36,009 nucleotides of DNA from Methylovulum psychrotolerans (GTDB lineage: Bacteria > Pseudomonadota > Gammaproteobacteria > Methylococcales > Methylomonadaceae): positions 7,291 to 43,299 of the forward strand of contig NZ_PGFZ01000018.1 of the NCBI RefSeq assembly GCF_002923755.1, read 5' to 3'. Under the pieces are notes generated by a model. It worked only from the letters and a program-made list of their open reading frames with translations, ran no database searches and had not been told where the DNA came from. Made by a program: the position numbers and the translations under genes. Position 1 is the stretch's first letter. Each line of letters opens with the position of its first letter. Below are positions 5,123 to 34,576 of the stretch, in pieces.

Positions 5123-5173
5123 AATCCCGTCTGGCAACAGGTCATATTCTAAAGCGATGCGGCTCTTGGCCAT

Positions 5174-7228: not shown

Positions 7229-7236
7229 CATTCCTC

Positions 7237-9843: not shown

Positions 9844-9894
9844 ACTGTTAGCTTCCGTTTAAAAATTATTCTGGGACGGTGCGGGAATGCTCCC

Positions 9895-11139: not shown

Positions 11140-11150
11140 AAAAACGGCCT

Positions 11151-13811: not shown

Positions 13812-13812
13812 A

Positions 13813-18520: not shown

Positions 18521-18536
18521 AGTAATCTCTCTTAGC

Positions 18537-18555
18537 TTGTTGAAGTTTTCAACAA
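18537..18555. promoter_or_regulatory. Palindromic candidate operator upstream of vapBC
   Basis: TTGTTGAA-GTT-TTCAACAA is a perfect inverted repeat with 8-bp arms and a 3-bp centre, located in the 77-bp gap between the brxC stop and the vapB start. Ribbon-helix-helix antitoxins typically bind such repeats near their own promoter. It suggests a second, internal control point in the BREX operon. A weak terminator is less likely because no T-run follows. Confidence 0.6.
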
Positions 18556-18597
18556 ATTATTGAGTATCGCCGGAGAAAATGCAAGTCATTGCGGATT

Positions 18598-21500
18598 TCA
18601 CTGAATCCGGGCTTTTTTGCCTTCCCGCAGTATGGCCATCAGGGATTGCCTGAGTTTGGCAAGGTAAGCGTCCACTTCCGCTTCGGTTTCCAGATAGCTT
18701 TTGTCACTGAGCGCTTGGGCATTAAGCACTTTAACAGGTTTTGGCGCGGTGTGGTTGCTGGGTTTGCTGACGGTTGCCGTGCCGGGCGCTTTATCGCCAA
18801 CCAGCGGCGGCTTTTGGCTGGCGGCAATCTTATCCATTGCCGTATCCAATAAGGTGCCGGTCTGTTCGCCCAGATAGCGGATTTGGGGGATGCTGGCCAA
18901 TCCGGCAATTTTGCTTTTGAGCTGTTGCAGCGGGTATAAGGCCTTATTGCGCAAAGCCATATCCGCTTGCACTTGCGTCAGGGCGGTGTCAATTTCGGCC
19001 AGCTTCTCCCCAATGGCCAATAAGGCGTTTTCCCGTTCGCTGTCCGCCAGTCGCCCGTTAACCGCGCCGACCGTGCCGAGTAAAGGGGCGATACGGTTGA
19101 TCTGGCCGTATGGGGCCGGATTATCCCGGATAAGGTTTAGCTCTTTGAGGGCGTTGGCGGCGTTACCGTCTTGCTGCAAGGCTTCGTGGTTGTCGGCAAA
19201 ATTAGCCAATGCGTCCAACATACGCTGCCAGGTTGTCAGTTGGGTTCTGTAGAAACTGGTGACATCGTGGCTGTCTTCCCGCAAATCCAGCCAATCGTCT
19301 TTGCCCGCCAGGAAGGTGTCGATGAATTCGTAACTGTCGCGGATCGCCAGTTGTTTGCCTATCTTGGCAAGGGTCTGGTCAATGACGGTTTTGCCGGGAT
19401 GATATTTCCCCGCCGCCACATGGCTGGTGTTTTTGAGTTCGTTTTGCCAGAGCGTGAAGCTGTCACGGATATCCGCGACCAAACCGTCCTCCTCTTCCCT
19501 AGGCAGTTTGGCAAACAATTCACGGTGCAAGTCGCGTGCGCGTTTGAGCGAGACGCTATCCGCCGATTTTCGTTTGAGCAGGGAGACTTGTTTAAAACGG
19601 ACGGCTTTGGTCAAGGGGTCTATGGCCGCTTTGGGTTCAATGTCAGCGCCTTCGAGCATCAATTTGATCTCACCCACCATGTAAAGCCGGGCGACTAGCA
19701 AGACGATCTCCCATTCCGGTTTCCAGCCCCACGGGATGCCGGTAAACCGGTCGATGAGGTCGGACAGCAACACGCGCTTTTCTGAAGCCGCCAGTAACAG
19801 GTATTGGCGCAGTTCGTTGACCGCGAGCGGGTTGAGTTCTTCGTTTTGGGTATCCGGCAACAGCGGCCTAATGTCATCGCCGGCAAGGACGGCTTTGATT
19901 TCGGCGACGGGGTCAGGTGTGCGGTATTTGAGATAGGGCAGTTTGTAGTAGGTGTTGCCGATCAAATAATTGCCCAGTTCATCCAGCAAGCCAGCCGGGT
20001 TAAGTCCCGCCTTAAGGTCGGGTTTTTGCCCCAGCACATAAAAATCCCCGGTCACCATCAGTGTGCCGAGCTGTTCGGTCAGGCGCAGTTTCCGCTCGCG
20101 GTTTTCATCCTTACGGTCAGCGAGGATGCGTTTTAATGATGGCGTGGCTTGGTCGGCCTTAGGGCTGATGATGTATTTTTCAATTTGCAGGTACAGCGTC
20201 AGCTCTTCATAAAGGCGTTGGCCTTCCGCCATGCGCAGGATAGCCCGGCCTGCCGATTCGCTGCTGCGTAATACACAGGTGGCCTCGTACAGCTTTTCAT
20301 AGTCATCGCCTAAGGGCGTGAGTATTTCCAGCGTTAAGGCATGGTGGGCGGTTTTCCACGGCGCACCATCAAGCAGGCGGTTAAATTCGTAGTCGCCTTT
20401 GGTGTCACGGTGGCGGACTTTGGTTTGGCTGCGGAGGATGTCCTCGAAAACCAGTTCGGACAGCAAGCGGGCACGTTCTGAAGCTGACACCTCGACATGG
20501 CCGAGTTCCCTGGCGACATCGCGTTCTTCATTGGTCAGGAAAAACCAGTGGTCGCCGTTACGGCTGACCAGTTGCTGTTGCTCCAGCCGGGCCAATGATT
20601 CTTGGATACGGCGTTTGAGCTTGAGTTTGTCGGCATCGACTTCCTCAAGACACAGCGTCGCCAAATTGTCGATGGTGGGCTTGATGGTTTCTGAAATGTA
20701 GCGGATCAGGAACAAGGCCTTGAGCAATTGGGTGTCGTAGGGTTCCAGTGCCGGGTTATCAGGGGCTTGGTCAATCGACTTTTTGGCGATGCTGTCAATA
20801 AAACTGTCGATGGACGGATAAAAGTCATACAAGGGTATTAGGGCGTTAATGGCCTTGCCGGCGTTTTGCACTGCCGCCGACTGGAAGGCGTCCAATAAGG
20901 AGCGTTCACCGCGTGACAAATGTTTGCCGGTCGCCCCCACTTTGCGGACCGACTCGAAGATTTTTTGTAAGAGTTGGAATTGGTAAGGGGTAAACGGATA
21001 AAAGGCGACAAATTCCGCCGCATCCTTAAAGCCCCGCAGGTGGGTGGTATTGCCCTGAAATGACAGTTGGTTGTTGATAATGTCGCCTTTTTGGGCATAG
21101 ATGTCGCGTAAGGCCACATGGGCGGCTTCGGTTTTGGACAGCAAACGCTCACCAATCACTTCGTCGGTGTTGGAGCTGGCCAAGGACAAGCGGGTATGGA
21201 AGCGGGCTTGGATTTTGGAAAAGTCTTGGGACTGGGTTTTGTTGGTGCCGCCGATGGCAGCGTCAATATCTTCTTGGCTGGTGACGATCACCCAGGCGCG
21301 TCCTTGGCACAGCGTGCCCAACTGCTCGACGATAGTTTGCAGGCTGAGCATCAGTTGGGTGTTGTCGCCGATAAACTGCCCGACTTCATCGGCCAGAAAA
21401 ATGACCCGGTGGCCGTCGGGTTTGCTGTCCAAATAGTCCCGCACCAACTTTGCCAAGCCTTCAATGTTGATGCGGTAGCTGTCACGGGCGTTGTCAAACC

Positions 21501-22203
21501 AACGTCCGGCGGATGCTTCCGTCATGTTGAGGGCTTGCGCCAAGGCGGCGACCACGTCATCACGCAGGAAGTCCACCGCATCGCGTTCCTGTTCCCAGGC
21601 ATTGCCGTTTTGGCTTTGGAAGACGGTTTTAAAGGTGCCGTAAGCCCCTTTGGCGATCAGGTAACGCTCCATTTCGGCGATATGCGGGGCATCACCACAC
21701 AGCCCCAGCTTTTCGTTAAACACCCGCAGAAACACTTGGACAATGGCGTCGCGTTCGGATTTGGCGTCCGCTTTGGCATCGATGTTAAACAGGATGACAT
21801 CGGCAGTCCCTTTAATGGCCCGATGGATGTCCGCCAACAGCAACGGGTCTTTGATTTTCTGTCCGTCAAAGAAATCCGCCGCTTTTTTCCGGTCGCCGGT
21901 GTTGGGGTCAACCGCCTCACGGTTTTCCAACAAGTAGGAGAGGATTTTGATGTAATGGGATTTCCCTGAGCCGAAGAACCCGGAAACCCAAACGCCCATC
22001 CGGGCGGTAATGGTCGGGTCTTTGGGCTGTTCGGCGGCGGCCAGGTAAGCGTCGAAGAATTTGCGGAAGTATTCGGTAAGCTGTTGGGTGACGACGTACT
22101 CTTCCAATTCCTGCCAGATGCTTTCCGCATCCAATTGGTCGGCCTTGATGACCCCATTGATCGGGCGGTCAATCGGCTTGGTGAACAGTTCCTTTATTTC
22201 CAT
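18598..22203 (-). CDS. brxC: BREX system P-loop ATPase BrxC
   Basis: The 1201-residue protein has the signature BrxC opening (MEIKELFTKPIDRPINGV) and Walker A GFFGSGKS at residues 75-82, with VIFLADEVGQFIGDN around 264-278 as the Walker B region. The C-terminal third is largely helical (DUF6079-type region), with a low-complexity linker rich in Pro/Lys before the end. Length equals typical BrxC (about 1200). BrxC is a large ATPase of the BREX complex and is required for defence. It begins 28 bases after the brxB stop with only a weak purine-rich ribosome site, so coupling to brxB is likely. It ends 77 bases before vapB, the largest internal gap in this part of the operon. Confidence 0.96.
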   Translation of the reverse strand: MEIKELFTKPIDRPINGVIKADQLDAESIWQELEEYVVTQQLTEYFRKFFDAYLAAAEQPKDPTITARMGVWVSGFFGSGKSHYIKILSYLLENREAVDPNTGDRKKAADFFDGQKIKDPLLLADIHRAIKGTADVILFNIDAKADAKSERDAIVQVFLRVFNEKLGLCGDAPHIAEMERYLIAKGAYGTFKTVFQSQNGNAWEQERDAVDFLRDDVVAALAQALNMTEASAGRWFDNARDSYRINIEGLAKLVRDYLDSKPDGHRVIFLADEVGQFIGDNTQLMLSLQTIVEQLGTLCQGRAWVIVTSQEDIDAAIGGTNKTQSQDFSKIQARFHTRLSLASSNTDEVIGERLLSKTEAAHVALRDIYAQKGDIINNQLSFQGNTTHLRGFKDAAEFVAFYPFTPYQFQLLQKIFESVRKVGATGKHLSRGERSLLDAFQSAAVQNAGKAINALIPLYDFYPSIDSFIDSIAKKSIDQAPDNPALEPYDTQLLKALFLIRYISETIKPTIDNLATLCLEEVDADKLKLKRRIQESLARLEQQQLVSRNGDHWFFLTNEERDVARELGHVEVSASERARLLSELVFEDILRSQTKVRHRDTKGDYEFNRLLDGAPWKTAHHALTLEILTPLGDDYEKLYEATCVLRSSESAGRAILRMAEGQRLYEELTLYLQIEKYIISPKADQATPSLKRILADRKDENRERKLRLTEQLGTLMVTGDFYVLGQKPDLKAGLNPAGLLDELGNYLIGNTYYKLPYLKYRTPDPVAEIKAVLAGDDIRPLLPDTQNEELNPLAVNELRQYLLLAASEKRVLLSDLIDRFTGIPWGWKPEWEIVLLVARLYMVGEIKLMLEGADIEPKAAIDPLTKAVRFKQVSLLKRKSADSVSLKRARDLHRELFAKLPREEEDGLVADIRDSFTLWQNELKNTSHVAAGKYHPGKTVIDQTLAKIGKQLAIRDSYEFIDTFLAGKDDWLDLREDSHDVTSFYRTQLTTWQRMLDALANFADNHEALQQDGNAANALKELNLIRDNPAPYGQINRIAPLLGTVGAVNGRLADSERENALLAIGEKLAEIDTALTQVQADMALRNKALYPLQQLKSKIAGLASIPQIRYLGEQTGTLLDTAMDKIAASQKPPLVGDKAPGTATVSKPSNHTAPKPVKVLNAQALSDKSYLETEAEVDAYLAKLRQSLMAILREGKKARIQ

Positions 22204-22231
22204 CTGGCTCTTTTCTCTATTGGCGGCGGTG

Positions 22232-22819
22232 TTATTGCGCTTCAGGTATCAACCTGAAGGCACGGTAGTAATGGTCTTCGGACAGTTTGTTGAACAGGCG
22301 CAATGAATAGCCGTCGTAACGGCCCGGGTAAAACATCAGTAACGGTGTTCTGCCCATTAAGGGATGCAGCGCCGACAGTAAGGTGTGCGTCCTCAGCAGG
22401 GGATACGCGCTGCCGACCCCCCACAGGATCAGCACGTCGCAGTTGTCCAGACCGGCCATCGCCACGATTTTTTGCGCCAATTTGTCTTCCTTAAGCACGG
22501 GGCGTAAGGCGGACAGGATAGCATCGTCACCTTTAGTGCGCTGCATTTCGATAGCCTTGTCGAGCAGCTTGCGTTCCTCAAGCACTTGGATCACGAGGTC
22601 AAATACGTTAACGGCTGCCGCACGGATGGGCGGTTGTGACTTGTTCAGCCGGGCGATCACCGTCCGGGTCAGAAAATCCCGCATGTCCAGTTCGCGTTCG
22701 GGCGGATAGTCAAAAATCCAAAAGCCAATTTCATTGCCGAGGCCTTTGCTGTTTAAGAAGTCATCGGAGGCAATTTTCGGCAGGATTTGATTGAGCCGTT
22801 CTTCAAAAGTCAATGCCAT
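22232..22819 (-). CDS. brxB: BREX protein BrxB (DUF1788)
   Basis: The 195-residue protein matches DUF1788: FEERLNQILPKI at the start, then GNEIGFWIFDYPPERELDMR around residues 29-48 and VLILWGVGSAYPLLRTHTLL in the second half, with LLMFYPGRYDGYSLRLF near the end. BrxB is a core BREX-1 component of unknown biochemical role. The ATG shares one base with the brxA stop (TGATG), so translation is directly coupled. Confidence 0.94.
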   Translation of the reverse strand: MALTFEERLNQILPKIASDDFLNSKGLGNEIGFWIFDYPPERELDMRDFLTRTVIARLNKSQPPIRAAAVNVFDLVIQVLEERKLLDKAIEMQRTKGDDAILSALRPVLKEDKLAQKIVAMAGLDNCDVLILWGVGSAYPLLRTHTLLSALHPLMGRTPLLMFYPGRYDGYSLRLFNKLSEDHYYRAFRLIPEAQ

Positions 22820-23412
22820 CAGACCCGCTCCAGCAGTCCGATTAAGGCGGTGTCGCCATGGGCCGACAGGTAATGCCGGACATCGGGATGTAAAGATTGC
22901 GGGGTCAGTTTCATGCTGCCGGAATTTTCAAGATAGTTGGCTTCGGCCAGGATACGGCGGATAACCTGGAATAATTTGGCTTGTGTTGCGGCCGACCAGT
23001 GCGCCACGGACGGGTCCCTATGCCGGCATTCGCTTAAGAAGCCGTCCCAATCGAGCGGGGATAGCGCCAAATCTAACCGGCGTTGATGGCCGATATAAAC
23101 GTCCCTTATATAATCGGCCAGCAATTGGCTGTGCTTGGCGGCGGCAACCAATAAAAGTTGGATGCTCACCTCTTTTTCCCGATGGGCGATCATGTCCCAA
23201 CCGGTGTCATCAAGCGTCTTCAGGCGTTTTCTGATCAAACCGGCTTGGCGTAACGCCGTGGCCGGCGCTTTCTTTTGCAAGAGGTTATCGTCAACTAAGG
23301 CCTGTTTCCAGGCCTTATCGTCAGGACGGCCCAATAAAAATGCCGCGATACGGCGGCTTTCCAAGGGCATCAGGGAGCCGGCGGAAATTTCTGCGTTGTA
23401 ATAAGCGTTCAC
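22819..23412 (-). CDS. brxA: BREX protein BrxA (DUF1819)
   Basis: The 197-residue protein matches DUF1819: YYNAEISAGSLMPLESRRIA at residues 4-23, then KKAPATALRQAGLIRKRLKT. BrxA is a small helical DNA-binding protein that is part of the BREX-1 core. The start is a GTG at 23410-23412 with no strong Shine-Dalgarno sequence. There are 62 bases between the brxR stop and this start, without a recognisable promoter, so brxR and brxA probably share a transcript. Confidence 0.92.
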   Translation of the reverse strand: MNAYYNAEISAGSLMPLESRRIAAFLLGRPDDKAWKQALVDDNLLQKKAPATALRQAGLIRKRLKTLDDTGWDMIAHREKEVSIQLLLVAAAKHSQLLADYIRDVYIGHQRRLDLALSPLDWDGFLSECRHRDPSVAHWSAATQAKLFQVIRRILAEANYLENSGSMKLTPQSLHPDVRHYLSAHGDTALIGLLERV

Positions 23413-23474
23413 AGTATGTTCAAAAATTGCCCATCATGTAATCCCCATCCGTTTTTCGGACGGCTCTGTTAAAG

Positions 23475-24383
23475 CTATAACGGCGCCTCGTACCCAGGCG
23501 CAAACACTGCGCTTGATACGTTATATAAGGCAAGGTGGTTCCTAAGCCAAAGCCGATATTCATTGCCTTTAAGGCGGTGGTCTGGCGAACAATCGACAAG
23601 CCAATGCCGAAGCACATAGCCGGCGGTGGCCGCCCTGACATTTATCCGCAACACCCCCGCTATCATGCCATAGTCGCCTTCAATAATTTGGGAATGTTCT
23701 TGGTTTGGGTGCGGTACCAAGTCCAGTTCCACTATCCGGTTCCATTGTATATCCGCCCCAGGTAGCTCATGGCTTTCAATGGGGCTATTGTCAACCGACG
23801 TGGTTGCCAACATCCTGGTAAGGACAAAGTCACGGAACTCGGAGGATTTCCGGTCATACGCACGGACATGCCAACGGAGGCCATCATTGACTAAGGCGAA
23901 CGGAATGATTTCACGGACGGTCGCCCCGCTGGTGAACGATTTATATTCCATGCGGACTGCTTTTTTATTATAGATAGCCCGTGTGACCGGCGCGAGGATG
24001 TCGATGGACGGGTTATTTAACGTCAGCGGAAGTTCGCAAGCCAGCAAAGCGCCCATGCTAGACCCGCCCTCACCAAAACCTTGGGATAAGGCCGTTAACA
24101 CCCGCTCCGAAGCGTGTCGGAACGCCGCCGTGAAACCATCCCCCAACACATACCGTTTAGTTTTGCTGTCGAAATTGATGTTTTCCGGGAAGGTGTCCCG
24201 GTATTGGGCAAAGTCCCTGGTGGCGACGGCAGGCGCTATCCCAAACCGTTGGATTAAATCCTGGCGCCGCGCTTCCCCAAGAAAATACAGGCGGAATTCA
24301 ATGTAGGCCAAACGCTCCCTTTGTGCGCGGCTTAAATGGTCTAGCCCATTCGGAATAAGGTTTTCTAAGTGTTTATTTTCCAT
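23475..24383 (-). CDS. brxR: BREX transcriptional regulator BrxR (winged helix + WYL domain)
   Basis: The 302-residue protein has an N-terminal winged-helix region (QRERLAYIEFRLYFLGEARR, ATRDFAQYR) and a WYL-type ligand-binding domain (RMEYKSFTSG, EIIPFALVNDGLRWHVRAYD, FRDFVLTRM), plus a C-terminal dimerisation part. BrxR-family proteins sit first in many BREX operons and repress them by binding upstream inverted repeats. I chose the ATG at 24383; a TTG at 24419 would add 12 hydrophobic residues unlike the family. No Shine-Dalgarno precedes either start, but a -35/-10 pair ends only a few bases before the ATG, which suggests a leaderless or near-leaderless message. Confidence 0.9.
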   Translation of the reverse strand: MENKHLENLIPNGLDHLSRAQRERLAYIEFRLYFLGEARRQDLIQRFGIAPAVATRDFAQYRDTFPENINFDSKTKRYVLGDGFTAAFRHASERVLTALSQGFGEGGSSMGALLACELPLTLNNPSIDILAPVTRAIYNKKAVRMEYKSFTSGATVREIIPFALVNDGLRWHVRAYDRKSSEFRDFVLTRMLATTSVDNSPIESHELPGADIQWNRIVELDLVPHPNQEHSQIIEGDYGMIAGVLRINVRAATAGYVLRHWLVDCSPDHRLKGNEYRLWLRNHLALYNVSSAVFAPGYEAPL

Positions 24384-24390
24384 GATTTCA

Positions 24391-24419
24391 AGTATAGCCA
24401 ATAAGACTATAACAAGCAA
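24391..24419 (-). promoter_or_regulatory. Candidate sigma-70 promoter of the BREX operon
   Basis: On the minus strand TTGCTT (24414-24419), a 17-base spacer and TATACT (24391-24396) form a reasonable promoter. Transcription would start within a few bases of the brxR ATG at 24383. A second AT-rich candidate -10, TATAAT, lies further upstream near 24453-24458 without a good -35. Confidence 0.45.
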
Positions 24420-25806: not shown

Positions 25807-26289
25807 ATGAGTGTCAGCAGTACTGCCCCACTGAACTTTGAAGAGTCGCGTGCGCTTCTAAATGATGATCATCAGCTTCAAGAGGCTTTGACCAAAGTTG
25901 AAACTATCGATTTTTCCATGCTTACCCGTAAGCTTGTTGAAGAACATGGCTGGACTGGCGAGTTTTGCCAGGAAGTTGAAGATTTATACCGCAAATTTCT
26001 TGCGCTCAACATCCGCTATCCTGAGAAGAAGATTTGCCCTACTGGTCCTATTGATGAGTTTTGGCATGCCCACATATTGGATACGAGAGCTTATGAGATG
26101 GACAGTAACTTCCTCTTTGGTAAATTTCTCCACCACTTCCCCTACTTTGGCATGCGTGGGCTAGAAGATCGCGCTAACTTGGAAGCAGCATTCCAAGAAT
26201 CCATTGACTTATTTGTGTTGCATTATGGCATTGACCCAACCGCTGGCGATGTGAATGCTCGCAGCTGTGCGCCTCAAAGATGCCCCTGA
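25807..26289 (+). CDS. GRDP-like domain protein with C-terminal two-Cys tail; candidate RiPP precursor
   Basis: The 160-residue protein is mostly a compact helical domain with PIDEFWHAHI at residues 81-90 and LHHFPYFGMRG at 108-118. This is the FWHxHILDT...Y motif of glycine-rich-domain-containing (GRDP/DUF1399-like) proteins. The domain ends near residue 143, and a short tail follows, DPTAGDVNARSCAPQRCP, with cysteines at 154 and 159 and prolines at 156 and 160. The gene is first in a seven-gene unit, has the strongest ribosome site, and is followed one base after its stop by a methyltransferase; two oxygenases and an RRE-like fusion follow. I infer that the folded part acts as a leader and the tail as a core peptide. 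It has no signal peptide and no catalytic motif I know. It could instead be a standalone metal-binding or scaffold protein. Confidence 0.6.
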   Translation: MSVSSTAPLNFEESRALLNDDHQLQEALTKVETIDFSMLTRKLVEEHGWTGEFCQEVEDLYRKFLALNIRYPEKKICPTGPIDEFWHAHILDTRAYEMDSNFLFGKFLHHFPYFGMRGLEDRANLEAAFQESIDLFVLHYGIDPTAGDVNARSCAPQRCP

Positions 26290-26290
26290 T

Positions 26291-26992
26291 ATGGCAGAAA
26301 TTAAGCGCATCTTCATGTTCGACCATGCTGAAGATGTTCGCCTAGAAAAAAGAAACCTCCTCTTTTGGCGTGCTTTGCTGGGTCATATCCAAGCAGATCG
26401 AGCCATAGAGGCAGGAGCTACCATATTGGATGTCGGATGTCATCGCGGCGGGTTGCTTGAACTTGCCATAGACCGATTTAAACCTGCAAGCATAATCGGC
26501 ATTGAGCCCTTAAAACCAGCGCGAAACGCCGCCCAGCAGAAGCTTGGTATCTTTCGGGGGCATGTTCAAATTCTCAGTGAAAAGGAGTGGAATCGTATTC
26601 CTGACACCTCTGTTGATCTCTTGCTTTCCCACGAAGTTTTGCCATTCTTTGACGATCTACAGTTCATAAGCAAACAGATGGGGCGCGTTCTTAAGCCAGG
26701 AGCCTTTGCTTATATGGTGTCTGGTTGCCATACTGAAAATCCCCTTTGGCCTAGATGGAAAGAAGCCCTTCAAATTCAAGGCCACGTTGTCTATGATCAT
26801 TCTCCCCTAGACTTGATGAGAGCGGTCAGTATAACTGGATTTTCACCTTCAGTTCGTCCATTACGAGATAGCGGCTGGGCACACTATAATCCTGTAGAAC
26901 AGGATGTTTTCAAGTATCCATCAGTGCAGGCTCTTCTGGATCACCAATTCAAACACAAACTTCTCTTCCGGTTTCAACGGTCATCAAATTAA
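26291..26992 (+). CDS. Class I SAM-dependent methyltransferase (first of the cluster)
   Basis: About 233 residues with the SAM-binding motif I ILDVGCHRGG at 45-54, an acidic end of strand beta-2 in IIGIEPLK, and later VDLLLSHEVLPFF and MGRVLKPGAFAYM, the usual Rossmann methyltransferase layout (Methyltransf_11-like). The substrate cannot be told; the cluster suggests the peptide encoded just upstream. The ATG at 26291 is one base after the precursor-like gene's stop, so translation is coupled. An in-frame start at 26255 inside that gene is possible but would add residues unlike the family. Confidence 0.78.
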   Translation: MAEIKRIFMFDHAEDVRLEKRNLLFWRALLGHIQADRAIEAGATILDVGCHRGGLLELAIDRFKPASIIGIEPLKPARNAAQQKLGIFRGHVQILSEKEWNRIPDTSVDLLLSHEVLPFFDDLQFISKQMGRVLKPGAFAYMVSGCHTENPLWPRWKEALQIQGHVVYDHSPLDLMRAVSITGFSPSVRPLRDSGWAHYNPVEQDVFKYPSVQALLDHQFKHKLLFRFQRSSN

Positions 26993-27022
26993 GGGCTGAT
27001 AATGTTTGTAATCATAAGTTAA

Positions 27023-27055
27023 GGCTACTTCAAAAACCTGTGCTACAAAGTAGCC
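27023..27055 (+). other. Hairpin in the gap before the first oxygenase gene
   Basis: GGCTACTT and AAGTAGCC form a perfect 8-bp stem with a 17-base loop, inside the 128-base gap between the methyltransferase and the oxygenase, the longest gap in the cluster. No T-run follows, so it is not a standard terminator. It might stabilise or attenuate the transcript, separating the precursor and first methyltransferase from the remaining genes. Confidence 0.4.
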
Positions 27056-27120
27056 AAGCTTTCCAAAGAGTAAAGTTAATAGGATATAAATTGACTAGCA
27101 CATAATGAGAATAAAGCCTG

Positions 27121-27990
27121 ATGAATACCATTGAAATTACTATGTCACCTGCTGTGTCCCATCTTTTAGAAGTTACCGCTAAAACACATAGGATTGATAG
27201 CCTTGAGCAATACTTTCTCGATCCAGCGTCATCACAACTTGATTTCACATTCGAACCAGAATGGCATGACTTTGTCGATCAGGTAAGCAATGCATGGAAA
27301 ACTAATCATCATATGGTTGTTCGCAATATGCCTACGGATAACGGGGCGTCCACTCTGCTTGCCGCCTTAAGCTTGCCTGCGCGATTTAAGCCTTACCGAG
27401 ACCAAAAAATCGTTAAGCATTTCAAAATGTCGCCTTGGACTGAGGAGCTTTCCCAAACCATTAAAGAAGGCCATTTTCATACAGACCTTAACACAGCTCC
27501 AATACCACCAGCAGCTACGGTGATTCACTGTATTAAGTCTGATCCAGATCCAAAGATGGGGGTGTCCCGCGTGGCATTGCTGTCTGATTTGATCAACCAC
27601 TTGGAAAAAGTAGGAGCCACAGAAACCCTCACATTTTTGACCGAAACCCAGGTAGATATGGTTGATGAGCGAAAGCAAAGTGCTTGGTCTGGCCTGATTG
27701 TAGAAAGTGATGCCATTCGTTTCCATCCAGAGACCTTGCGTGCAGCTGCAAGACGGCTTAATTCTCTGCCCGAGGATTTGGAAGCTTATTTAGCACAAAT
27801 CCATGAGAGTGCCTTGGCCGTATCAGAGCCCATACATCTGGCACCAGGTGATGCCATCTTTGTTTCCAATAAACGCGCGCTTCACTATCGCGGTGCCTGT
27901 ACTGCACAATTTACTATGTTTCCACATGAGTTTCAGACACGTGAAATCTATGTTTTACATCTACAGGAAGAGCCTCAATGGAGCGTCTGA
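27121..27990 (+). CDS. TauD/clavaminate-synthase-like Fe(II)/2-oxoglutarate oxygenase (first)
   Basis: The 289-residue protein carries a 2-His-1-carboxylate iron site: H120 and D122 in EGHFHTDLNTAP and the distal H255 in SNKRALHYRG, the pattern of TauD-superfamily and clavaminate-synthase-like enzymes. R274 (FQTREIYVLH) is a candidate for binding 2-oxoglutarate. These enzymes hydroxylate or desaturate unactivated carbons; peptide side chains are substrates in several natural product pathways. The stop overlaps the UvrA-like gene's start by 13 bases. The ATG follows a 128-base gap with a weak ribosome site. Confidence 0.75.
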   Translation: MNTIEITMSPAVSHLLEVTAKTHRIDSLEQYFLDPASSQLDFTFEPEWHDFVDQVSNAWKTNHHMVVRNMPTDNGASTLLAALSLPARFKPYRDQKIVKHFKMSPWTEELSQTIKEGHFHTDLNTAPIPPAATVIHCIKSDPDPKMGVSRVALLSDLINHLEKVGATETLTFLTETQVDMVDERKQSAWSGLIVESDAIRFHPETLRAAARRLNSLPEDLEAYLAQIHESALAVSEPIHLAPGDAIFVSNKRALHYRGACTAQFTMFPHEFQTREIYVLHLQEEPQWSV

Positions 27991-30900
27991 AGATTGACAC
28001 TATTGAAGTTATTGGAGCGGATGCCAACAATCTGCGCGATGTAGATGTTCATTTCCCCATAGGCGGTATTTCTATGGTGGTGGGGATGTCCGGTTCTGGT
28101 AAAAGTTCACTTTTAAAAAACGTTCTGGCCACAGAGGGCAATCAGCGTTTGAAGGATTTTCTTGGTGTCGGACAAAATCACCTCGATCCTCCTTTGAATC
28201 ATGCATTTGTGGGAGCGCTGCCCGCTACAATCCATGTAGGTCAAAGGGCATTCCGCGCTTCCTCGAGAACGACGGTAGGAACTGCCAGCGGACTTTTGTC
28301 ATTGCTGCGCCAGATGTTTTTGCGCTGGTCCTACCCAGTGTCCCGCGCGACGGGGCATCCGGTCAATAGGCCCAATGCGATCGACTATACAGACTGGTTG
28401 CTTGAGCATCATTCTGGGAATATTGTGGTTTGGGCGATTCCTCTTTCCTTTGTAGCCAGCGATGGCATGGACATGGCTCAGCGCCTACTTGACCTTGGCC
28501 TCAAATCAGTCATCGTACGTAGTGAGACCGATTCACCACAACAATGGGAAAACGGACGTCTAATTCTCCTTGCTAATTTCAAACCACTTTCGCTCAAGTC
28601 TCGGCATCTTGTGGAGGTAGAGATTGGAAGCATCAACCTTGGCACGCGAACCGTAAAGAACGACCAGAAACTTCGAGATCTCCTCGACCTTGCTTTTAAA
28701 GCAGGTGAAGGAAAAGTTTTTGTGGAAACCCTACATAGCAATATACAAGATTTTCAAGGCCCCAACGGGCCTGGGCTTGATTCACGCCACCACTGGGTGA
28801 CACCAATGGATCAAAGGATTTATCGTCCAGCAGATCACCATCTTCTTTCTTTTAATGCCCCCGATCACGAGGCCAGTGGAGCCTGCCCCGAGTGCCGGGG
28901 CTTGGGCAAAGCTGCGACCATAGACATTGATGCGCTCATCAATAATTCTCAACGCTCCATGCATCAAGGAGCCTGTGCCCTTTGGAGTACCAAGAATTAT
29001 AAGTTCGTCAACATCCAGCACTCTACCATCGAAGGTCTGCGGGGCATGGCTGGTTTTGATCCCGATATCCCTTGGAACCAATTAAGTAAGGAAGCGCAGA
29101 ATCTGATCTTGAACGGCAGTGGTGCTGCTCTAATTACCGATATTGAACCTAGCACTTTGCGCAAAATGAGCAAACCACGCCCCTATCCCGGCTTGGTTCC
29201 TAGCATTATGAAACACATTATCAATGGCAGTAAAACTGGAGAGCATCTGGCTTTTTTGATTCGAGATGGTCGCTGCTCCCTGTGTCAAGGAACCCGCTGG
29301 TCTCATGCTGCCCGTTCTCTGATACTTGGCCATCAAACTATCGACGGTATACTACAAATGAATTTTGATGAACTAGCAGCACTCTGTCAGCCTTCATCAA
29401 TTTTTGCTCAAACACTTCCTTCTGAGGCGGCTCCCTTCCTAGCTCAGATTTCGCGCCTTACTGAAAGCTTAGTTGGTGTTGGACTTTCCCATCTGAGTGC
29501 TGATCGCGGCATGCTTGAAATCAGCGAAGGGGAATCCAGGCGCATTCGTCTTGCCGCTGTTTTTGATGGGCGTCACCGTGGGCTTTGCCTTTTACTTGAT
29601 GAACCCGCCCGTGGTCTTCACGACGAAGATGTTCTCAGATTGACTGAGACCCTAGAACAATTGCGCGGACAACACACGCTCATTATTAATGAACATCGGC
29701 AACAGCTGGCTCAAGTAGCCGATCACTTTATTCAGCTTGGCCCCAGTGGCGGACCTAAAGGCGGGCAGATTACTTATGTCGGCTCCGTACCTGAGCAATG
29801 GTGGGAGTCGCCCGTGGAAATGAAACGGGTTGCGCGACCCGTGGATGTGAATGGGCCTTATCTTTTGATTCGTGGTGCCTGTTGTCACAACTTAAACAAT
29901 CAAGATGTATCCATTCCTCTTGGGCATTTGATTTGTATTACCGGTATTTCCGGTTCTGGCAAATCCAGCTTTGTTCACGGTGTGCTCAAACCAGCGCTCA
30001 ATAATCCCCAGAATCCAAATCCCCAAAGCTGGCGTGAAATTGAGGTCACTCAACATATCAATGAGGTGATCAGCCTTGATCAGGGCACGCCGCCAGCCAA
30101 TCGACACAGCACCGTGGCAACTTTCCTGGATTTAGCTAAAGCGCTACGCAGCCATTACGGCAAACTGCCTCAGACCATACACGCAAAGCTCAATGACCGG
30201 GATTTTGGGCTAAACAGTGGTTGTGGTCGATGCTCTGGGTGCCTTGGTATTGGTGAGACGAAAGATGGTGAACATTGGATTCCCTGTTCCAGCTGTGGGG
30301 GCTCTCGTTTTGGCAGTCTGGTGCTATCCATTCATGATCACGGCCTCAACTTTTCCCAACTCCTCGACAAAACCATGGAGCAACTGCTCGATTTGCATCA
30401 CCCAGCAGTTGCTCCCTTTATTCCCTTCATTAAATCCATCACCAACCTTGGGCTTGGCCACCTTTCCCTAGGGCGTCGTTTAGATACCTTGAGCGGCGGA
30501 GAGATCCAGCGTTTGCGCATTGCCCGCCAGCTTAACCTCAATAATCCACACGGTTTTGTGCTTCTGCTCGACGAACCTGCCTCTGGACTTCACAAAAGAG
30601 ATGTCGCCAATCTGCTTAATGCCCTGGATCACGTTCTCGCCGATGGCAAGAATACAGTTATCTTAGTTGAGCACAACCTCTCAATTGTGGCCGCCAGCGA
30701 CTGGATTATCGAATTTGGTCCAGGCAGCGGACCAAAAGGGGGTACTGTGGTTGCTACCGGGAGCCCCGACCAATTATGCCATACAGATACCGCCACAGGG
30801 AGAATGCTGCTTAACTTTGGGAAAGCTGGAGTAGCGAAGGAACTATCCCTGCTTACTCCAAACAAGGAGGCGATGACGATCAATGCAGCCACAGCTGCAA

Positions 30901-32243
30901 GCACCTTGCGTTGGCTACGACGTCTACTTGGCGACGACATTCCGCCCAGCACCTCCCCTCAGGGAACTGTAGTTTCTACTCCCACCGTTGTCTTTCATCC
31001 AGAGAAGTTGGGTCAAACACGCCTAATTGAATATGGCGGACTGGATCGCGAACTTCTGACTCTCATGCTTGAACTTCAAATGATAGGCGATTCCCGTTTT
31101 TCTATTCAAAATATCCTAAAATGCTGGCAAGAACATCCAAAAGCTGAGCTTTTTGTACACCCTATAATTCAGGATATCTACATTTGGGGAAATAATCTAC
31201 CCACTAGCCTTATAGAAGAGCGGCGTAAGCAGTTGGTATCTCAGGGTTATCAGTGGCTTGAGGCTAAAAATATCGCCAAAATCCGGGTTGGCGGTATACC
31301 CTTTTATTGCCCTCAAGATGCCAACATGCAACAACGTCAGGAAACTCTCGATACAGCCATTGCCGTTGGTGGCGGTTATGTAGAGCTGTGCGAAGATGGC
31401 CATCTTCTGCATAGTTATACTAGGCGTCTAATTGACCTCGAAGGTATGCTTATTGGCCCCCTTAAAATATCGCCATACGACTTACAACATAACGGGCAGC
31501 GAGGCAAATGTATTGCTTGCAAGGGTAGTGGGCTAATTATGACTTATGATTCTCGCCTGATTTTTGGGCTGACAGATCATCCAATCGAAGAGAAAGTAGC
31601 CTTACATCCCCGAGCACTAGAAATTCTCAAGGGAGTTCACCGCAACATTTTGTTGCCATTCCTGAGGCGCATGAACAAGGAGGGACTTTGGCCTGCCAAG
31701 AAGCCGATAAAAGATTGGTCGACAAAAGAACAGGACTTGATTCTGCATGGCTTCTGGTGCCGCCCTGGTCCTGGGAGTTTCCTGAAAACAGCAAATATTA
31801 ACTCAAATGAAGTGGTCTCCTGGCTGCGCTGGGATGGCTTGTACCATCATCTTCGTGAAAACCTTGACCAAGGCCTTCAAGACTGGCAACGGCAGTTGTT
31901 GGAAAGCGCAAGAGAGCAGCCCTGTCCCACTTGTGACGGTCTGGGACTCCTGCCGTACATCCAGCTAATCACCTTTGGCGGAAAGAATTACGGAGACTGG
32001 ATCAAGCAAGGTACCGTCAGAGAGCTTTGGAGTGTGCTGCACAAGCTCCAACCAGAGGGTGGGCGCCTCAAACATCGTCGGGAGCGCCTGCTTGCTATCC
32101 TTGCAACTTTGATAGATAAGGGCTTTGGCCATACCTACCTGTTCCACCTCATATCTCCCGATGTTGCAGCCCAATTTGTCCCACTGGTTGTCAGCCAGTT
32201 CACCCTGATGCCAGTCCTCATGGAGTCTCTTGCCAGTGATTGA
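27978..32243 (+). CDS. UvrA-like ABC ATPase, 1421 residues, with an extra third zinc module
   Basis: The protein follows UvrA order but is about 480 residues longer than UvrA. First ATPase: Walker A GMSGSGKS (36-43), zinc-type CPECRGLG (about 303) and CSLCQG (about 433), signature ISEGESRRIRLA (about 514-525, E replaces the first conserved G of SGGE), Walker B LLLDEPARGLH. Second ATPase: GISGSGKS (about 656), CGRCSGC and CSSCGGSRF (about 748-776), a canonical LSGGEIQRLRIARQL, and LLLDEPASGLH. From about 950 onward is an extra region with CIACKGSG (about 1177) and CPTCDGLG (about 1315) but no P-loop. Housekeeping UvrA finds DNA damage; UvrA paralogues such as DrrC protect producers of DNA-binding antibiotics. 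Here self-resistance is the leading inference. AGGAAGAG precedes the ATG. Confidence 0.85.
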   Translation: MERLKIDTIEVIGADANNLRDVDVHFPIGGISMVVGMSGSGKSSLLKNVLATEGNQRLKDFLGVGQNHLDPPLNHAFVGALPATIHVGQRAFRASSRTTVGTASGLLSLLRQMFLRWSYPVSRATGHPVNRPNAIDYTDWLLEHHSGNIVVWAIPLSFVASDGMDMAQRLLDLGLKSVIVRSETDSPQQWENGRLILLANFKPLSLKSRHLVEVEIGSINLGTRTVKNDQKLRDLLDLAFKAGEGKVFVETLHSNIQDFQGPNGPGLDSRHHWVTPMDQRIYRPADHHLLSFNAPDHEASGACPECRGLGKAATIDIDALINNSQRSMHQGACALWSTKNYKFVNIQHSTIEGLRGMAGFDPDIPWNQLSKEAQNLILNGSGAALITDIEPSTLRKMSKPRPYPGLVPSIMKHIINGSKTGEHLAFLIRDGRCSLCQGTRWSHAARSLILGHQTIDGILQMNFDELAALCQPSSIFAQTLPSEAAPFLAQISRLTESLVGVGLSHLSADRGMLEISEGESRRIRLAAVFDGRHRGLCLLLDEPARGLHDEDVLRLTETLEQLRGQHTLIINEHRQQLAQVADHFIQLGPSGGPKGGQITYVGSVPEQWWESPVEMKRVARPVDVNGPYLLIRGACCHNLNNQDVSIPLGHLICITGISGSGKSSFVHGVLKPALNNPQNPNPQSWREIEVTQHINEVISLDQGTPPANRHSTVATFLDLAKALRSHYGKLPQTIHAKLNDRDFGLNSGCGRCSGCLGIGETKDGEHWIPCSSCGGSRFGSLVLSIHDHGLNFSQLLDKTMEQLLDLHHPAVAPFIPFIKSITNLGLGHLSLGRRLDTLSGGEIQRLRIARQLNLNNPHGFVLLLDEPASGLHKRDVANLLNALDHVLADGKNTVILVEHNLSIVAASDWIIEFGPGSGPKGGTVVATGSPDQLCHTDTATGRMLLNFGKAGVAKELSLLTPNKEAMTINAATAASTLRWLRRLLGDDIPPSTSPQGTVVSTPTVVFHPEKLGQTRLIEYGGLDRELLTLMLELQMIGDSRFSIQNILKCWQEHPKAELFVHPIIQDIYIWGNNLPTSLIEERRKQLVSQGYQWLEAKNIAKIRVGGIPFYCPQDANMQQRQETLDTAIAVGGGYVELCEDGHLLHSYTRRLIDLEGMLIGPLKISPYDLQHNGQRGKCIACKGSGLIMTYDSRLIFGLTDHPIEEKVALHPRALEILKGVHRNILLPFLRRMNKEGLWPAKKPIKDWSTKEQDLILHGFWCRPGPGSFLKTANINSNEVVSWLRWDGLYHHLRENLDQGLQDWQRQLLESAREQPCPTCDGLGLLPYIQLITFGGKNYGDWIKQGTVRELWSVLHKLQPEGGRLKHRRERLLAILATLIDKGFGHTYLFHLISPDVAAQFVPLVVSQFTLMPVLMESLASD

Positions 32244-32982
32244 TGCAAATAACTACCAACTTTACGGTGCTTTTGGGGATCGTTATGATCTTCATACCCC
32301 GGCCCATCACTACCAACACGATCACCAGTTTCTCATTCAGCGGATTCAGAATATTGGTGGTCTTGGTCGAATTCTCGACATTGGTTGCGGAACGGGGGTC
32401 TTTTTAGAGAAGGCTCTTGCCGCTGGACTCGATCCAATTGGCTTGGATCCCGCACCTGCTATGCTCCAACTTGCCAGTCAAAAGGTCGGAATGAGCCGCG
32501 TACGTCTCAGGCGCATGCAGGATCTTGATGACCAACAAGCATTTAACGCAATTACCGCTCTTTCCTGGTCGCTTAACTATTGTCGTGATTATGGAGAGCT
32601 TTGTACGGTATTGATGCGATGTAAAGAAGCATTGCATCCAGGTGGTGGACTATTTCTTCAGGTCGCTCATGCACCCCATGCAGCCACGCAACCCCCCGAT
32701 TTCTTTGTGGACTACGAAGCTGGGCCCGGTGGTCCCCAAGATATTGTTTTGAAATACCGTTTTTGGGCAGCCGATCATCAAACCATGATGGCCGAATATA
32801 ACTTCGAATGTATATCTATGGCTGATTCTTTCCGTGAAGTCCATGTGCTTCAGGTTGCAGATGCCATGCTTGTTGCTAGCGCCGCAGAGGAAGCGGGGTT
32901 TATCGACTTGGAAATCCTAGAGGGCTATGGCGGTGACCCTTTGAAAAAAGCCATCAATCCGTTTATCTTTGGAAAAGTTTAG
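32230..32982 (+). CDS. Class I SAM-dependent methyltransferase (second of the cluster)
   Basis: About 250 residues. The N-terminal YDLHTPAHHY and RILDIGCGTGVFLE (47-60, motif I) followed by GLDPAPAMLQLA identify a Methyltransf_25/11-type Rossmann enzyme; LKYRFWAADHQ and EYNFECISM in the second half resemble small-molecule and peptide methyltransferases. The start is uncertain: TTG at 32230 with GGAG four bases upstream, overlapping the UvrA-like stop by 14 bases, or GTG at 32236 with better spacing. The substrate is unknown. Three bases separate its stop from the next gene, so it is part of the same operon. Confidence 0.8.
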   Translation: MPVIDANNYQLYGAFGDRYDLHTPAHHYQHDHQFLIQRIQNIGGLGRILDIGCGTGVFLEKALAAGLDPIGLDPAPAMLQLASQKVGMSRVRLRRMQDLDDQQAFNAITALSWSLNYCRDYGELCTVLMRCKEALHPGGGLFLQVAHAPHAATQPPDFFVDYEAGPGGPQDIVLKYRFWAADHQTMMAEYNFECISMADSFREVHVLQVADAMLVASAAEEAGFIDLEILEGYGGDPLKKAINPFIFGKV

Positions 32983-32985
32983 GCT

Positions 32986-33834
32986 ATGAGTAAGCCGATT
33001 GTGGTAAGACTTAGTTACTATGTTTGTTTTGTGCGATATAAGGATTATGTGGAACTTCAACACACCGCTCGTAATATGTGTTATCAAATAGATTTGGAAA
33101 CATTCCATCGCCTACTTTACTTTGGTAATTTTAAGGCTTTCGAGGAGGATCTTAACTTCTGGTTTGATAACGGAATTTTAGTAGCCCCGTATTTGGATAC
33201 CTTTGAACTACACAAAGGGAAGAAAGAAAGCGAAGCTGGGCTCGCTAATGCCTATCACAAATGGTATTGGCAACACGAGGTGGAGACAGAACGCGAATAT
33301 CGCTGGCTAGGCAAGGTAGCGGTGAAGATGCCAACCGATCTCTTTTTCTACCAGGAGACTTTGTCCGAACTATCTAGGCGGCACGTCCTTGAACTTGGTT
33401 ATGGTCAAGGTGGTTCATTGCATTTCTTTAGTAGTATCGTCGGCTTACTCGGCGGCGGACTGGTAGTGGGGGTCGATAAGGAAAACAGTGCCTCGGTCAT
33501 TGATGCGTCGTCCGATTTACCAGTAATTCTAATTCATGGAGATGCATTGTGCAACGAGACCGTTTATAAGGCTCAAATTATCTCCCAAAACTACGACTTG
33601 ATTGTCCTTGATCTCGGGCCATCGCATATCAATTATCAAGCTCTAACTCTGTGGACACCATTGCTTGCGCCTCAGGGCGTGCTTGTGATTGAAGATCTTT
33701 GGGGAACAGACGATGAGAATTTGATTCCTAGAACGATTGATTTGCTTTTATTGGATAATCCGCAATTAGCTTTTTACGAGCCAGCCCGTCGCTATCCCTT
33801 TTTGAAGGGAATTGTTTTGTCAAACTTGGGTTAA
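32986..33834 (+). CDS. CmcI-like methyltransferase with N-terminal RRE/PqqD-like domain
   Basis: The 282-residue protein is a CmcI-type (cephalosporin hydroxylase family) methyltransferase from about residue 110 on: KMPTDLFFYQETL (114-126), VLELGYGQGGSLHFF (134-148), GVDKEN, LDLGPSH (208-214) in place of the usual DSDH, and VLVIEDLWG (232-240). The first ~75 residues, IVVRLSYYVCF, QHTARNMCYQIDLETFHRLL and DNGILVAP, have the strand-strand-strand-helix-helix pattern of PqqD-like RiPP recognition elements, with the usual end at D/N-G-I-L-V. If right, this domain would hold the leader of the 160-residue protein and deliver it for modification. The RRE call rests on pattern only. ATG 32986 is well placed three bases after the upstream stop. 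Confidence 0.7.
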   Translation: MSKPIVVRLSYYVCFVRYKDYVELQHTARNMCYQIDLETFHRLLYFGNFKAFEEDLNFWFDNGILVAPYLDTFELHKGKKESEAGLANAYHKWYWQHEVETEREYRWLGKVAVKMPTDLFFYQETLSELSRRHVLELGYGQGGSLHFFSSIVGLLGGGLVVGVDKENSASVIDASSDLPVILIHGDALCNETVYKAQIISQNYDLIVLDLGPSHINYQALTLWTPLLAPQGVLVIEDLWGTDDENLIPRTIDLLLLDNPQLAFYEPARRYPFLKGIVLSNLG

Positions 33835-33841
33835 GTGATAG

Positions 33842-34576
33842 ATGAATAAGATTATCCAGACTATTAGCGAGAATCTAGCTAGGGATGGCTATCACTATGA
33901 TCCCTGCTTTGAGCCCAATAATCTATCCCTTACCCAGAAAAAAGATATGTTTGTAGCGTTTGCCAGTCAATTTGGAGAGATATATCTATCTGAGAGTGAG
34001 TCTGTTCTTCAAACTAACCCACAACCTACAGCTCCGTCTTGGATGCCTTTTGATCGCAGCGCTCAAATCGGTTGGCATAATGATTTTACCACGAAAAAGG
34101 TACGACCTCGAATCAGTATGTCTTGGATTGTCAATCAAGATCCACAGGGGCCGATGAAAGGGGGGTGGCGTTTAGCATCCGCGCGAGATGTAATTACGGT
34201 AATTCGAGGTATGAATGATGGCGTTGAGCGCGTAGCAAGGCTGGCACAGCCTATTTTCCCCTTTGGTTACTTGGGTGGAGGGGCGGTAAAGCATTTTCCT
34301 ATTCTTAAAAAAGCGGATGGAGATCAGATGCGTTTTTACGGACGTGCGCTTCGAGAAGGGGTACGGCTAAAGACTCGGCAAATAATAACAAAGCCAGAAC
34401 TATTGGAAATCGTTCAGATTGTGGAGAATGCTGCCGATATGGTAGGTTGTGTGAAACCCGCCCACCAAAGTGCTTTAATGGTGGTAGATAATACACGTTC
34501 GTTGCATGATAGGCTGCCACAGACGATTGATGGTAAGCAGCTATTACGCATGGCCTTGCTATGTTTTGTTGTTTAG
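33842..34576 (+). CDS. TauD-like Fe(II)/2-oxoglutarate oxygenase (second)
   Basis: The 244-residue protein has IGWHNDFTTK (H79, D81) and DNTRSLHDRLPQ (H222) as a 2-His-1-carboxylate iron site, with R236 (LLRMALLCF) 14 residues after the distal His, the spacing of clavaminate-synthase-like enzymes that bind 2-oxoglutarate. It is clearly divergent from the other oxygenase in the cluster, so the two probably carry out separate steps. It lies 7 bases after the CmcI-like gene and is the last gene of the unit. The IS66 element begins about 100 bases after its stop, so further genes of the cluster may have been cut off. Confidence 0.75.
   Translation: MNKIIQTISENLARDGYHYDPCFEPNNLSLTQKKDMFVAFASQFGEIYLSESESVLQTNPQPTAPSWMPFDRSAQIGWHNDFTTKKVRPRISMSWIVNQDPQGPMKGGWRLASARDVITVIRGMNDGVERVARLAQPIFPFGYLGGGAVKHFPILKKADGDQMRFYGRALREGVRLKTRQIITKPELLEIVQIVENAADMVGCVKPAHQSALMVVDNTRSLHDRLPQTIDGKQLLRMALLCFVV

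What the first reader, a model, noticed from the sequence alone, without database searches (positions are those of the whole stretch)
25807..34576. Unrecognised seven-gene peptide-modification cluster (candidate new RiPP type)
A 160-aa non-enzymatic protein with a Cys-containing tail leads an operon of three methyltransferases, two distinct Fe(II)/2-oxoglutarate oxygenases and a giant UvrA-like ATPase. Coupled junctions (gaps or overlaps of 1-14 bases, one 128-base gap) show these genes act together. None of the known RiPP class-defining enzymes (LanM, YcaO, radical SAM, DUF692, ATP-grasp) is present. Seen: domains and order. Inferred: a ribosomal peptide product that is methylated and hydroxylated, possibly targeting DNA.
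Basis: partly seen in the sequence, partly recalled or inferred. Interest (0 to 1): 0.92.

Follow-up and report, generated by a model that had tools for sequence, protein, structure and literature searches.

The report
Peptide-tail modifying operon with UvrA-like ATPase
A seven-gene bacterial operon, with its core found in distantly related bacteria, seems to chemically modify the cysteine-bearing tail of a small helper protein and to pair it with an enlarged DNA-damage-sensing ATPase; this looks like an undescribed kind of ribosomal peptide pathway, though no product has been seen yet.

Summary
In detail: seven coupled genes encode a 160-aa Cys-tailed protein (g1), three methyltransferases (MTs), two Fe(II)/2-oxoglutarate (2OG) oxygenases and a 1421-aa UvrA-like ATPase (g4). 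g1 is GRDP-like: a helical domain without a PDB fold match plus a disordered Cys-bearing tail. A core of g1 + MT + 2OG oxygenase + extended UvrA was found in 16 clusters (Pseudomonadota, Acidobacteriota); 13 share the order g1-g2-g3-g4-g5. In these the tail stays C-x4-C-[PR]-COOH (15 of 16) although g1 falls to 34-42% identity. The four g1 genes nearest the main clade without the operon lack that tail or have a degraded one, and the extended UvrA was not found in 66 of 66 genomes holding only orphan g1 relatives. g4 carries a second UvrA-like zinc/DNA-binding module. Nine of 16 clusters lie beside known or candidate anti-phage genes, but so do 3-4 of 11 control loci: not significant. Best reading (0.55): the tail is a core peptide modified by the operon's enzymes, with g4 acting on DNA as immunity or effector. 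Against: most fetched homologues have no such operon nearby, some share the tail spacing, and no protease or transporter recurs. No modification is shown. My paper searches found no description.

The parts
25807..26289 (+). g1: 160-aa GRDP-like protein, helical domain plus C-terminal tail ...ARSCAPQRCP; proposed precursor or carrier
26257..26286 (+). g1 residues 151-160 (ARSCAPQRCP), low-confidence/disordered in the model and conserved; proposed core peptide
   Evidence: A151, R152, C154, Q157, C159, P160 invariant in 13 of 13 type-A g1; mean entropy 0.52 against 0.87 for residues 21-141; pLDDT under 50 at 156-160
26255..26992 (+). g2: class I SAM methyltransferase (in-frame start at 26291 also likely) with a GCHxENPxW-type motif
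   Evidence: profile A6 at E 1e-40 matched only the own genome of 185
27121..27990 (+). g3: TauD-type Fe(II)/2OG oxygenase, HTD...ALHYR site
   Evidence: a 2OG oxygenase with an HxD motif is in 16 of 16 clusters; my pattern for the distal His matched in 13 of 16
27978..32243 (+). g4: 1421-aa UvrA-like ATPase, both Walker A motifs present
30831..32243 (+). C-terminal extension of g4 (about 470 aa): second UvrA-like zinc/DNA-binding module, possibly also UvrB-binding-like, without Walker motifs
   Evidence: the intact examples seen all lie with a g1 gene
32230..32982 (+). g5: class I SAM methyltransferase, in 13 of 13 type-A loci
32986..33834 (+). g6: CmcI/rhamnosyl O-methyltransferase-like, found in 4 of 13 type-A loci
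33842..34576 (+). g7: second Fe(II)/2OG oxygenase (HND...LHDR), homologues in 6 of 13 type-A loci
5174..24419 (-). Neighbouring BREX island on the opposite strand (BrxA, BrxB, BrxC, PglZ, BrxL domains, a WYL-domain gene); context, not part of the operon
   Evidence: Pfam

Best explanation
The operon makes a ribosomally encoded, post-translationally modified peptide or tail-modified protein. The helical GRDP-like domain of g1 is the leader or carrier; its flexible C-terminal tail (C-x4-C-P) is the substrate. g2 and g5 (with g6) methylate it and g3 (with g7) oxidises it. g4, an enlarged UvrA-like ATPase with a duplicated zinc/DNA-binding module, acts on DNA either as self-protection against a DNA-directed product or as the machine that uses the modified tail there. 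Shown: gene content, conserved order, tail conservation, catalytic motifs, architecture of the g4 extension. Inferred: that the tail is modified, where, whether it is released, and the DNA link.
For: g1-g2-g3-g4-g5 in 13 of 13 type-A loci, window included, and three divergent type-B clusters with g1 + MT + 2OG + extended UvrA: 16 in all. C-x4-C-x-COOH in 15 of 16 cluster g1 (14 of 15, L146 read) against 8 of 73 non-cluster homologues; penultimate Cys 16 of 16 against 20 of 73. On a tree of the g1 domain without tails the 17-row clade holding type A has four members without the operon: three have no tail Cys (L044, L045, L085) and one a degraded tail (L041); the extended UvrA was not found in their genomes. 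The tail is low-confidence in the model yet more conserved than the domain. At least 2 tail Cys in 81 of 87 homologues parsed, and 3 or more Cys repeats in 8 of 87; Cys tails at 6 of 6 places (own included) found by a domain-only query. Two Walker A motifs and a 2OG HxD motif in 16 of 16.
Against: 67 of the 80 fetched g1 relatives show no such operon in the fetched flanks, and 8 of the 73 non-cluster homologues share the C-x4-C-x-end spacing (all CKPxxC[KR]), so the tail may have an enzyme-independent role. No protease or transporter family recurs: one search lists, as shared by three or more type-A loci, only the g1-g7 families. The GRDP-like domain has invariant W86, H87, D92, H110, which could make it an enzyme or metal protein. 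Wider-family tails are enriched for Cys (313 of 3684 residues against 153 of 9306 in the domain), which also fits plain metal binding. The 13 type-A tails are orthologues, so independent cases are few (type A, L104, L078/L146), and the tree does not fix whether the tail was gained or lost.
Confidence: 0.55

Rival explanations
1. g1 is an unmodified accessory protein: its Cys tail is a metal-binding or redox arm that serves the oxygenases or the UvrA-like ATPase, and the enzymes build a small non-peptide metabolite.
For: Most fetched wider-family homologues carry Cys tails with no such enzymes in the flanks; tails such as CWHDCQGRCWHAC and HACHVPTSCACRVPGAC look metal-binding (by eye); a penultimate Cys resembles C-terminal thiol arms (recalled); invariant His in the domain.
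Against: In the clade nearest type A the tail is missing or degraded where the operon is absent; 8 of 87 homologues have 3-11 Cys repeats, which fit a multi-core substrate better than a redox arm; no scaffold-building enzyme is in the operon.
Confidence: 0.2
2. It is a dedicated anti-phage system: the extended UvrA senses phage or modified DNA, and g1 with its modified tail is the effector or signal.
For: Nine of 16 clusters lie beside known or candidate defence genes: BREX and GmrSD in the window (Pfam), RdrB-like in L035 and L036, QatB/QatC and SIR2 in L037, candidate PDC families in L021, L032, L034, pVip in L033, type IIG RM and PDC-S02 in L104. RiPP precedent: lanthipeptide clusters in defence islands protect against phage (PMC12360287, passages).
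Against: Control flanks of 11 orphan-g1 loci hold such genes too, in 3-4 loci by my reading (type I RM and pVip in L056; DpdF/DpdG; TIR-TM and PDC-S01), giving a one-sided Fisher value of 0.10-0.21 for 9 of 15. Cluster-side proteins were hand-picked. g1, g3 and g7 match nothing in PADLOC and the hits of g2, g4, g5, g6 are generic MT/ABC matches. Odds lowered from 0.15 to 0.12 after this control was completed.
Confidence: 0.12
3. It is a DNA repair or DNA modification cassette in which the MTs and oxygenases act on nucleic acid and UvrA-like g4 finds the sites.
For: g4 is UvrA-like with a duplicated zinc/DNA-binding module.
Against: g3/g7 are TauD-like and g6 CmcI-like, families known for small-molecule substrates (established knowledge); no nuclease, glycosylase or nucleotide enzyme recurs among the clusters; the tail conservation would be unexplained.
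Confidence: 0.06

Closest known systems
RiPP pathways with large folded leaders (proteusins with NHLP/Nif11 leaders; recalled, not tested against a member)
   Same: A folded conserved N-terminal domain followed by a short variable Cys-containing tail; repeat-bearing tails in relatives; tailoring enzymes in one operon
   Different: Domain is GRDP-like; g1 matches no NCBIfam model at E<=1; no LanM, YcaO, radical SAM, DUF692 or ATP-grasp among the seven; no recurring protease or transporter
UvrA-like self-resistance proteins (DrrC, Ecm16) of DNA-intercalator clusters
   Same: UvrA homologue with Walker A motifs inside a putative biosynthetic operon; Ecm16 is among the PDB matches of g4 (7sh1, E 9.2e-82)
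   Different: [quoted passage not shown] g4 may keep it in degenerate form and adds about 470 residues of second UvrA-like module. A uvrA-like-gene survey of actinobacteria sorted its clusters into eight classes that include RiPPs (PMC10413001, passages)
Anti-phage lanthipeptide clusters in defence islands
   Same: RiPP operons that can lie beside defence systems
   Different: Other enzymes; no anti-phage activity is known here (PMC12360287, passages only)
GRDP (DUF1399) proteins of plants
   Same: Distant relation of the g1 domain (PF07173, below cut-off)
   Different: The 10 papers listed under DUF1399 concern plants, a fungus or plant-bacteria interaction by title (listing only)

Membership tests
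RiPP | Gene-encoded precursor with conserved leader and distinct C-terminal core | tested here: inconclusive
   Conserved domain plus low-confidence conserved Cys tail; core status not shown
RiPP | Modifying enzymes in the same operon, co-inherited with the precursor | tested here: met
   13 of 13 type-A and 3 type-B clusters; that they modify g1 is inferred
RiPP | Post-translational modification of the core shown | not testable with these tools
   needs mass spectrometry
RiPP | Leader protease and export genes | tested here: not met
   No such family recurs within the fetched flanks; not obligatory for all RiPPs (recalled)
Known RiPP classes | Precursor or class-defining enzyme matches a curated model | tested here: not met
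   g1: 0 NCBIfam families at E<=1; daptide_MTase (31.9 against 175 bits) and ApyS (18.5 against 400) hits of g5 far below cut-off
UvrA-like self-resistance (Ecm16/DrrC) | UvrA homologue with two ATPase sites in a biosynthetic cluster | tested here: inconclusive
   Two Walker A motifs in 16 of 16 (my signature and Walker B patterns did not match every site); biosynthetic nature inferred
UvrA-like self-resistance (Ecm16/DrrC) | Lacks the UvrB-binding domain | tested here: inconclusive
   PF17760 on the N-part scores 16.7 bits, below its cut-off of 23.3; the extension model matches isolated UvrB-binding domains only weakly (4dfc E 0.33, 3fpn E 0.93)
Known anti-phage systems | Match to a PADLOC system | tested here: not met
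   Only generic MT/ABC hits such as mad2 and mad3

The most novel reading that the evidence does not exclude
A RiPP-type chemical anti-phage defence: the methylated and oxidised C-x4-C tail of a GRDP-like carrier is a DNA-directed warhead or DNA-lesion mimic, and the 1.5-fold UvrA (UvrA plus a second zinc/DNA-binding module) uses or neutralises it on DNA. The much larger set of orphan GRDP-like Cys-tail proteins, some with up to 11 repeats, would then be an unexplored reservoir of precursor-like substrates. (Lowered from 0.15 after the defence-island control proved non-significant.)
Probability: 0.12. Interest if true: 0.95.

Novelty: new variant of a known kind. Interest (0 to 1): 0.75.

Why it matters
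If the tail is modified, this is a new RiPP class with a new leader fold and a UvrA partner, present in at least two phyla. The predictions are simple to test in E. coli by mass spectrometry.

Tried and rejected
Rejected: g4 as the housekeeping UvrA (the own genome has a separate ordinary UvrA, G000:C23:215499-218306, 31% identical). Not supported: a phage-borne system (no phage record with the C-extension; of 14 viral stretches matching a g1 pattern none confirmed). Rejected as proof of defence: the island context; the control holds defence genes too. Led nowhere: Foldseek of g1 (best E 1.2); PF07173 in the own genome and 14 controls (nothing rang); promoter scan (weak matches only). Literature: searches returned no paper; one unrelated soybean paper; ten papers on plants, a fungus or plant-bacteria interaction; eleven papers on UvrA-like self-resistance and related topics; four on natural products, defence islands or mobilomes; four, two on mining, two unrelated by title. 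None listed describes this operon by title or start of abstract; only PMC10413001, PMC12360287 and PMC10192343 were opened, by passages.

Limits. Gene calls in fetched loci are my longest-ORF picks, so neighbours can be mis-called. The 80 fetched loci are the best of 550 relatives, ranked by likeness to a query that includes the tail; the domain-only search was made to check that bias and found only 6 places, own included. L065 was left out of the tail count because my pattern did not parse it, and L027 because it duplicates L030 (87 counted). Many genomes are MAGs and may be incomplete, so 'not found' for the extended UvrA is not proof of absence; 12 of the 66 genomes gave weak matches (E 1e-8 to 1e-11) to UvrA-sized ORFs. 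PADLOC was run on 20 hand-picked flank proteins of the clusters; a rough rule counts 60 flank ORFs of 250 aa or more there (which skips the positions next to g1); the window was judged by Pfam only. The control scanned 106 ORFs of 11 loci (which shows 25 of 87 families); 15 loci were listed and 4 dropped for the residue limit; rescanned 93 of the 106 (all but the 10 of L056 and 3 helicase/ABC ORFs). Defence hits there are counted per set, not per locus; placing RM and pVip in L056 rests on sequence motifs. L031 and L146 have no usable flank. In one search the match list was cut, so rarity of the extended UvrA rests. The tree has few columns and rough support.
Full report
WHAT IS THERE. The seven ORFs lie at 25807-34576 on the + strand, tightly coupled. 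Pfam and NCBIfam give g2 and g5 as class I SAM methyltransferases, g6 as CmcI/rhamnosyl-O-MT-like, g3 as a TauD oxygenase, g7 as a weak TauD match, g4 as UvrA-like, and g1 only as a weak GRDP-like match. In the window both oxygenases keep an HxD...H-x-R site. PDB sequence searches match g6 to CmcI, g3 weakly to clavaminate synthase (E 0.024), g7 to nothing credible (best E 0.58), g4 to UvrA and Ecm16, g1 to nothing. The operon sits between a BREX island, with a GmrSD-type pair beyond it, and an IS66-type gene.

DISTRIBUTION. The 11 at 60% identity or more (L030-L040), an Azospirillum ramasamyi plasmid (L021) and the window carry g1-g2-g3-g4-g5 in the same order, L038 with a g7 homologue between g3 and g4: 13 of 13, called type A, in Pseudomonadota and Acidobacteriota. 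g6 homologues occur in 4 and g7 homologues in 6 of these 13; a PhyH-type oxygenase is found in 2 (L021, L040). That makes 16 clusters with a shared core of g1 + MT + 2OG + extended UvrA. The system is rare: at E 1e-25 the C-extension was found in 3 of 301 genomes of the order, own included and one of them a fragment, and in 1 of 74 of the G112 family; the MT profile at E 1e-40 matched 1 of 185 of the class, the own genome.

THE TAIL. AlphaFold2 gives g1 an all-helical domain (mean pLDDT 87) with a low-confidence C-terminus; Foldseek finds no PDB match (best E 1.2). Across type A, residues 151-160 have 6 of 10 invariant positions (ARxCxxQ[RN]CP), mean entropy 0.52, against 41 of 121 and 0.87 for residues 21-141. 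C-x4-C-x at the C-terminus is kept in L104 (NPCKSTDCR) and L146 (NPCAATRCR); L078 has SCGCRSGNGSSCR. So 15 of 16 cluster g1 have C-x4-C-[PR]-COOH and 16 of 16 a penultimate Cys, against 8 of 73 and 20 of 73 non-cluster homologues for C-x4-C-x-end and penultimate Cys. Identity to the window g1 falls to 42% (L104), 40% (L078) and 34% (L146). In the wider family 81 of 87 parsed homologues have at least two tail Cys (tail 313 of 3684 residues, domain 153 of 9306), and 8 have 3-11 near-identical Cys repeats such as AAWCSLEAGK or AAFCSIEPSQ. A query made of the domain only, run on 299 Pseudomonadota genomes, hit 6 places in 5 genomes, own included, and all 6 have Cys tails.

TAIL AND OPERON GO TOGETHER, WITH EXCEPTIONS. 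In a tree of g1 domains without tails (87 rows, 118 columns, rough support) the cluster g1 fall in at least two groups (4 label changes). In the 17-row clade that holds type A (99/94), the four rows without the operon have either no tail Cys (L044, L045, L085) or a degraded tail (L041...RGAACRGCA). L045 and L085 come from one genome. L044 lies at a contig end, so its neighbours cannot be read. The extended UvrA was not found in any of their genomes. The tree does not tell gain from loss. Over the C-extension matched strongly in 4 genomes (L034 and L036 as positive controls; L078 and L104) and in the 66 other genomes gave no match (54) or only a weak one to a UvrA-sized ORF (12). Against this reading, eight orphan homologues (six Bacteroidota, one alphaproteobacterium, one actinobacterium) carry CKPxxC[KR] tails of the same spacing without the operon in the fetched flanks.

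THE UVRA PARTNER. g4 is a UvrA-like ATPase (two Walker A motifs in 16 of 16) plus about 470 residues. The extension has two invariant CxxC pairs, aligns with g4's own zinc/insertion region (hhalign E 6e-7), and its model matches UvrA (3uwx, E 1.8e-14). Matches to isolated UvrB-binding domains are weak (4dfc E 0.33, 3fpn E 0.93), so that part is tentative. It is best read as a second zinc/DNA-binding module without Walker motifs. Ecm16, a UvrA-like resistance protein, lacks the UvrB-binding domain (PMC10192343, abstract and passages); g4 differs at least by the added module.

CONTEXT. Nine of 16 clusters have known or candidate defence genes within the fetched flank: the window (BREX, GmrSD by Pfam), L021, L032, L034 (candidate PDC families), L033 (pVip), L035 and L036 (RdrB-like, overlapping the g7 homologue by 4 nt), L037 (QatB, QatC, SIR2), L104 (type IIG RM, PDC-S02). 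A control of 106 flank ORFs from 11 orphan-g1 loci at E 1e-20 also holds such genes: type I RM and pVip (both in L056 by motif), DpdF with DpdG, TIR-TM and PDC-S01, besides generic ABC hits. That is 3-4 loci by my reading, more if the hits of a set lie in separate loci. One-sided Fisher for 9 of 15 against 3 or 4 of 11 is 0.10 or 0.21: not significant, though cluster flanks are shorter. The island context therefore gives a lead, not support.

MECHANISM. Most likely g1 is a carrier-bound precursor whose tail is methylated and oxidised by the operon; g4 links the product to DNA as immunity or effector. There is a precedent for RiPPs as defence: anti-phage lanthipeptides in defence islands (PMC12360287, passages). 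Every step beyond gene content and conservation is inference. The lack of a recurring protease or transporter argues for a product that stays in the cell or on its carrier. The searches for prior description are listed in Tried and rejected; none of the papers listed describes this system by title or start of abstract.

Noticed in passing
L025 9995-10603, L026 9974-10549, L064, L082, L084, L094, L103, L109 (g1 homologue ORFs); G354:C1:389379 and 390852: Orphan GRDP-like proteins with 3-11 Cys repeats (AAWCSLEAGK, AAFCSIEPSQ, AYCAGPH and others), several next to a related long gene of about 1100 aa (looks like a sensor/diguanylate protein by eye, not searched); two adjacent paralogues in G354.
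   Followed up: partly
L022 11827-12402 and L024 9944-10420: GRDP-like proteins without a Cys tail in Pseudomonas savastanoi and Halomonas plasmids, each followed by a ~440-aa multi-pass membrane protein that looks flippase-like by eye; in Halomonas beside annotated LuxR and AHL-synthase genes.
   Followed up: no
L035 17021-20442 and L036 10180-13454, - strand: RdrB-like (RADAR) adenosine deaminase gene overlapping a g7-type oxygenase gene by 4 nt, convergent with the g1-g5 operon.
   Followed up: partly
L152 (G764:C50), about 9230-9835, - strand: Fragment of an extended-UvrA C-terminus in the same family as the window genome, with no g1, MT or 2OG gene found by tblastn in 18.5 kb; probably the relic of a lost cluster.
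   Followed up: partly
L056 9899-11659: GRDP-like Cys-tail gene directly followed by a gene with a viperin-type radical SAM motif, and type I RM-like genes at 1466-8088 upstream (motifs; PADLOC counts).
   Followed up: no
L146 3869-5215, - strand: Protein with pentapeptide-like repeats (by eye) inserted in the G112 type-B operon; such proteins can protect gyrase (recalled), which would fit a DNA-directed product.
   Followed up: no
window 24895-25034: 28-nt inverted repeat (93% complementary) around an inner 18-nt inverted repeat, upstream of g1: MITE- or REP-like element.
   Followed up: no
L040 990-9581: 2863-aa ORF upstream of the Caenispirillum cluster, no PADLOC match at 1e-5.
   Followed up: no
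window 1453-5122: Two adjacent GmrSD_N-domain genes, only the second with a GmrSD_C match, on the opposite strand to the BREX island.
   Followed up: no
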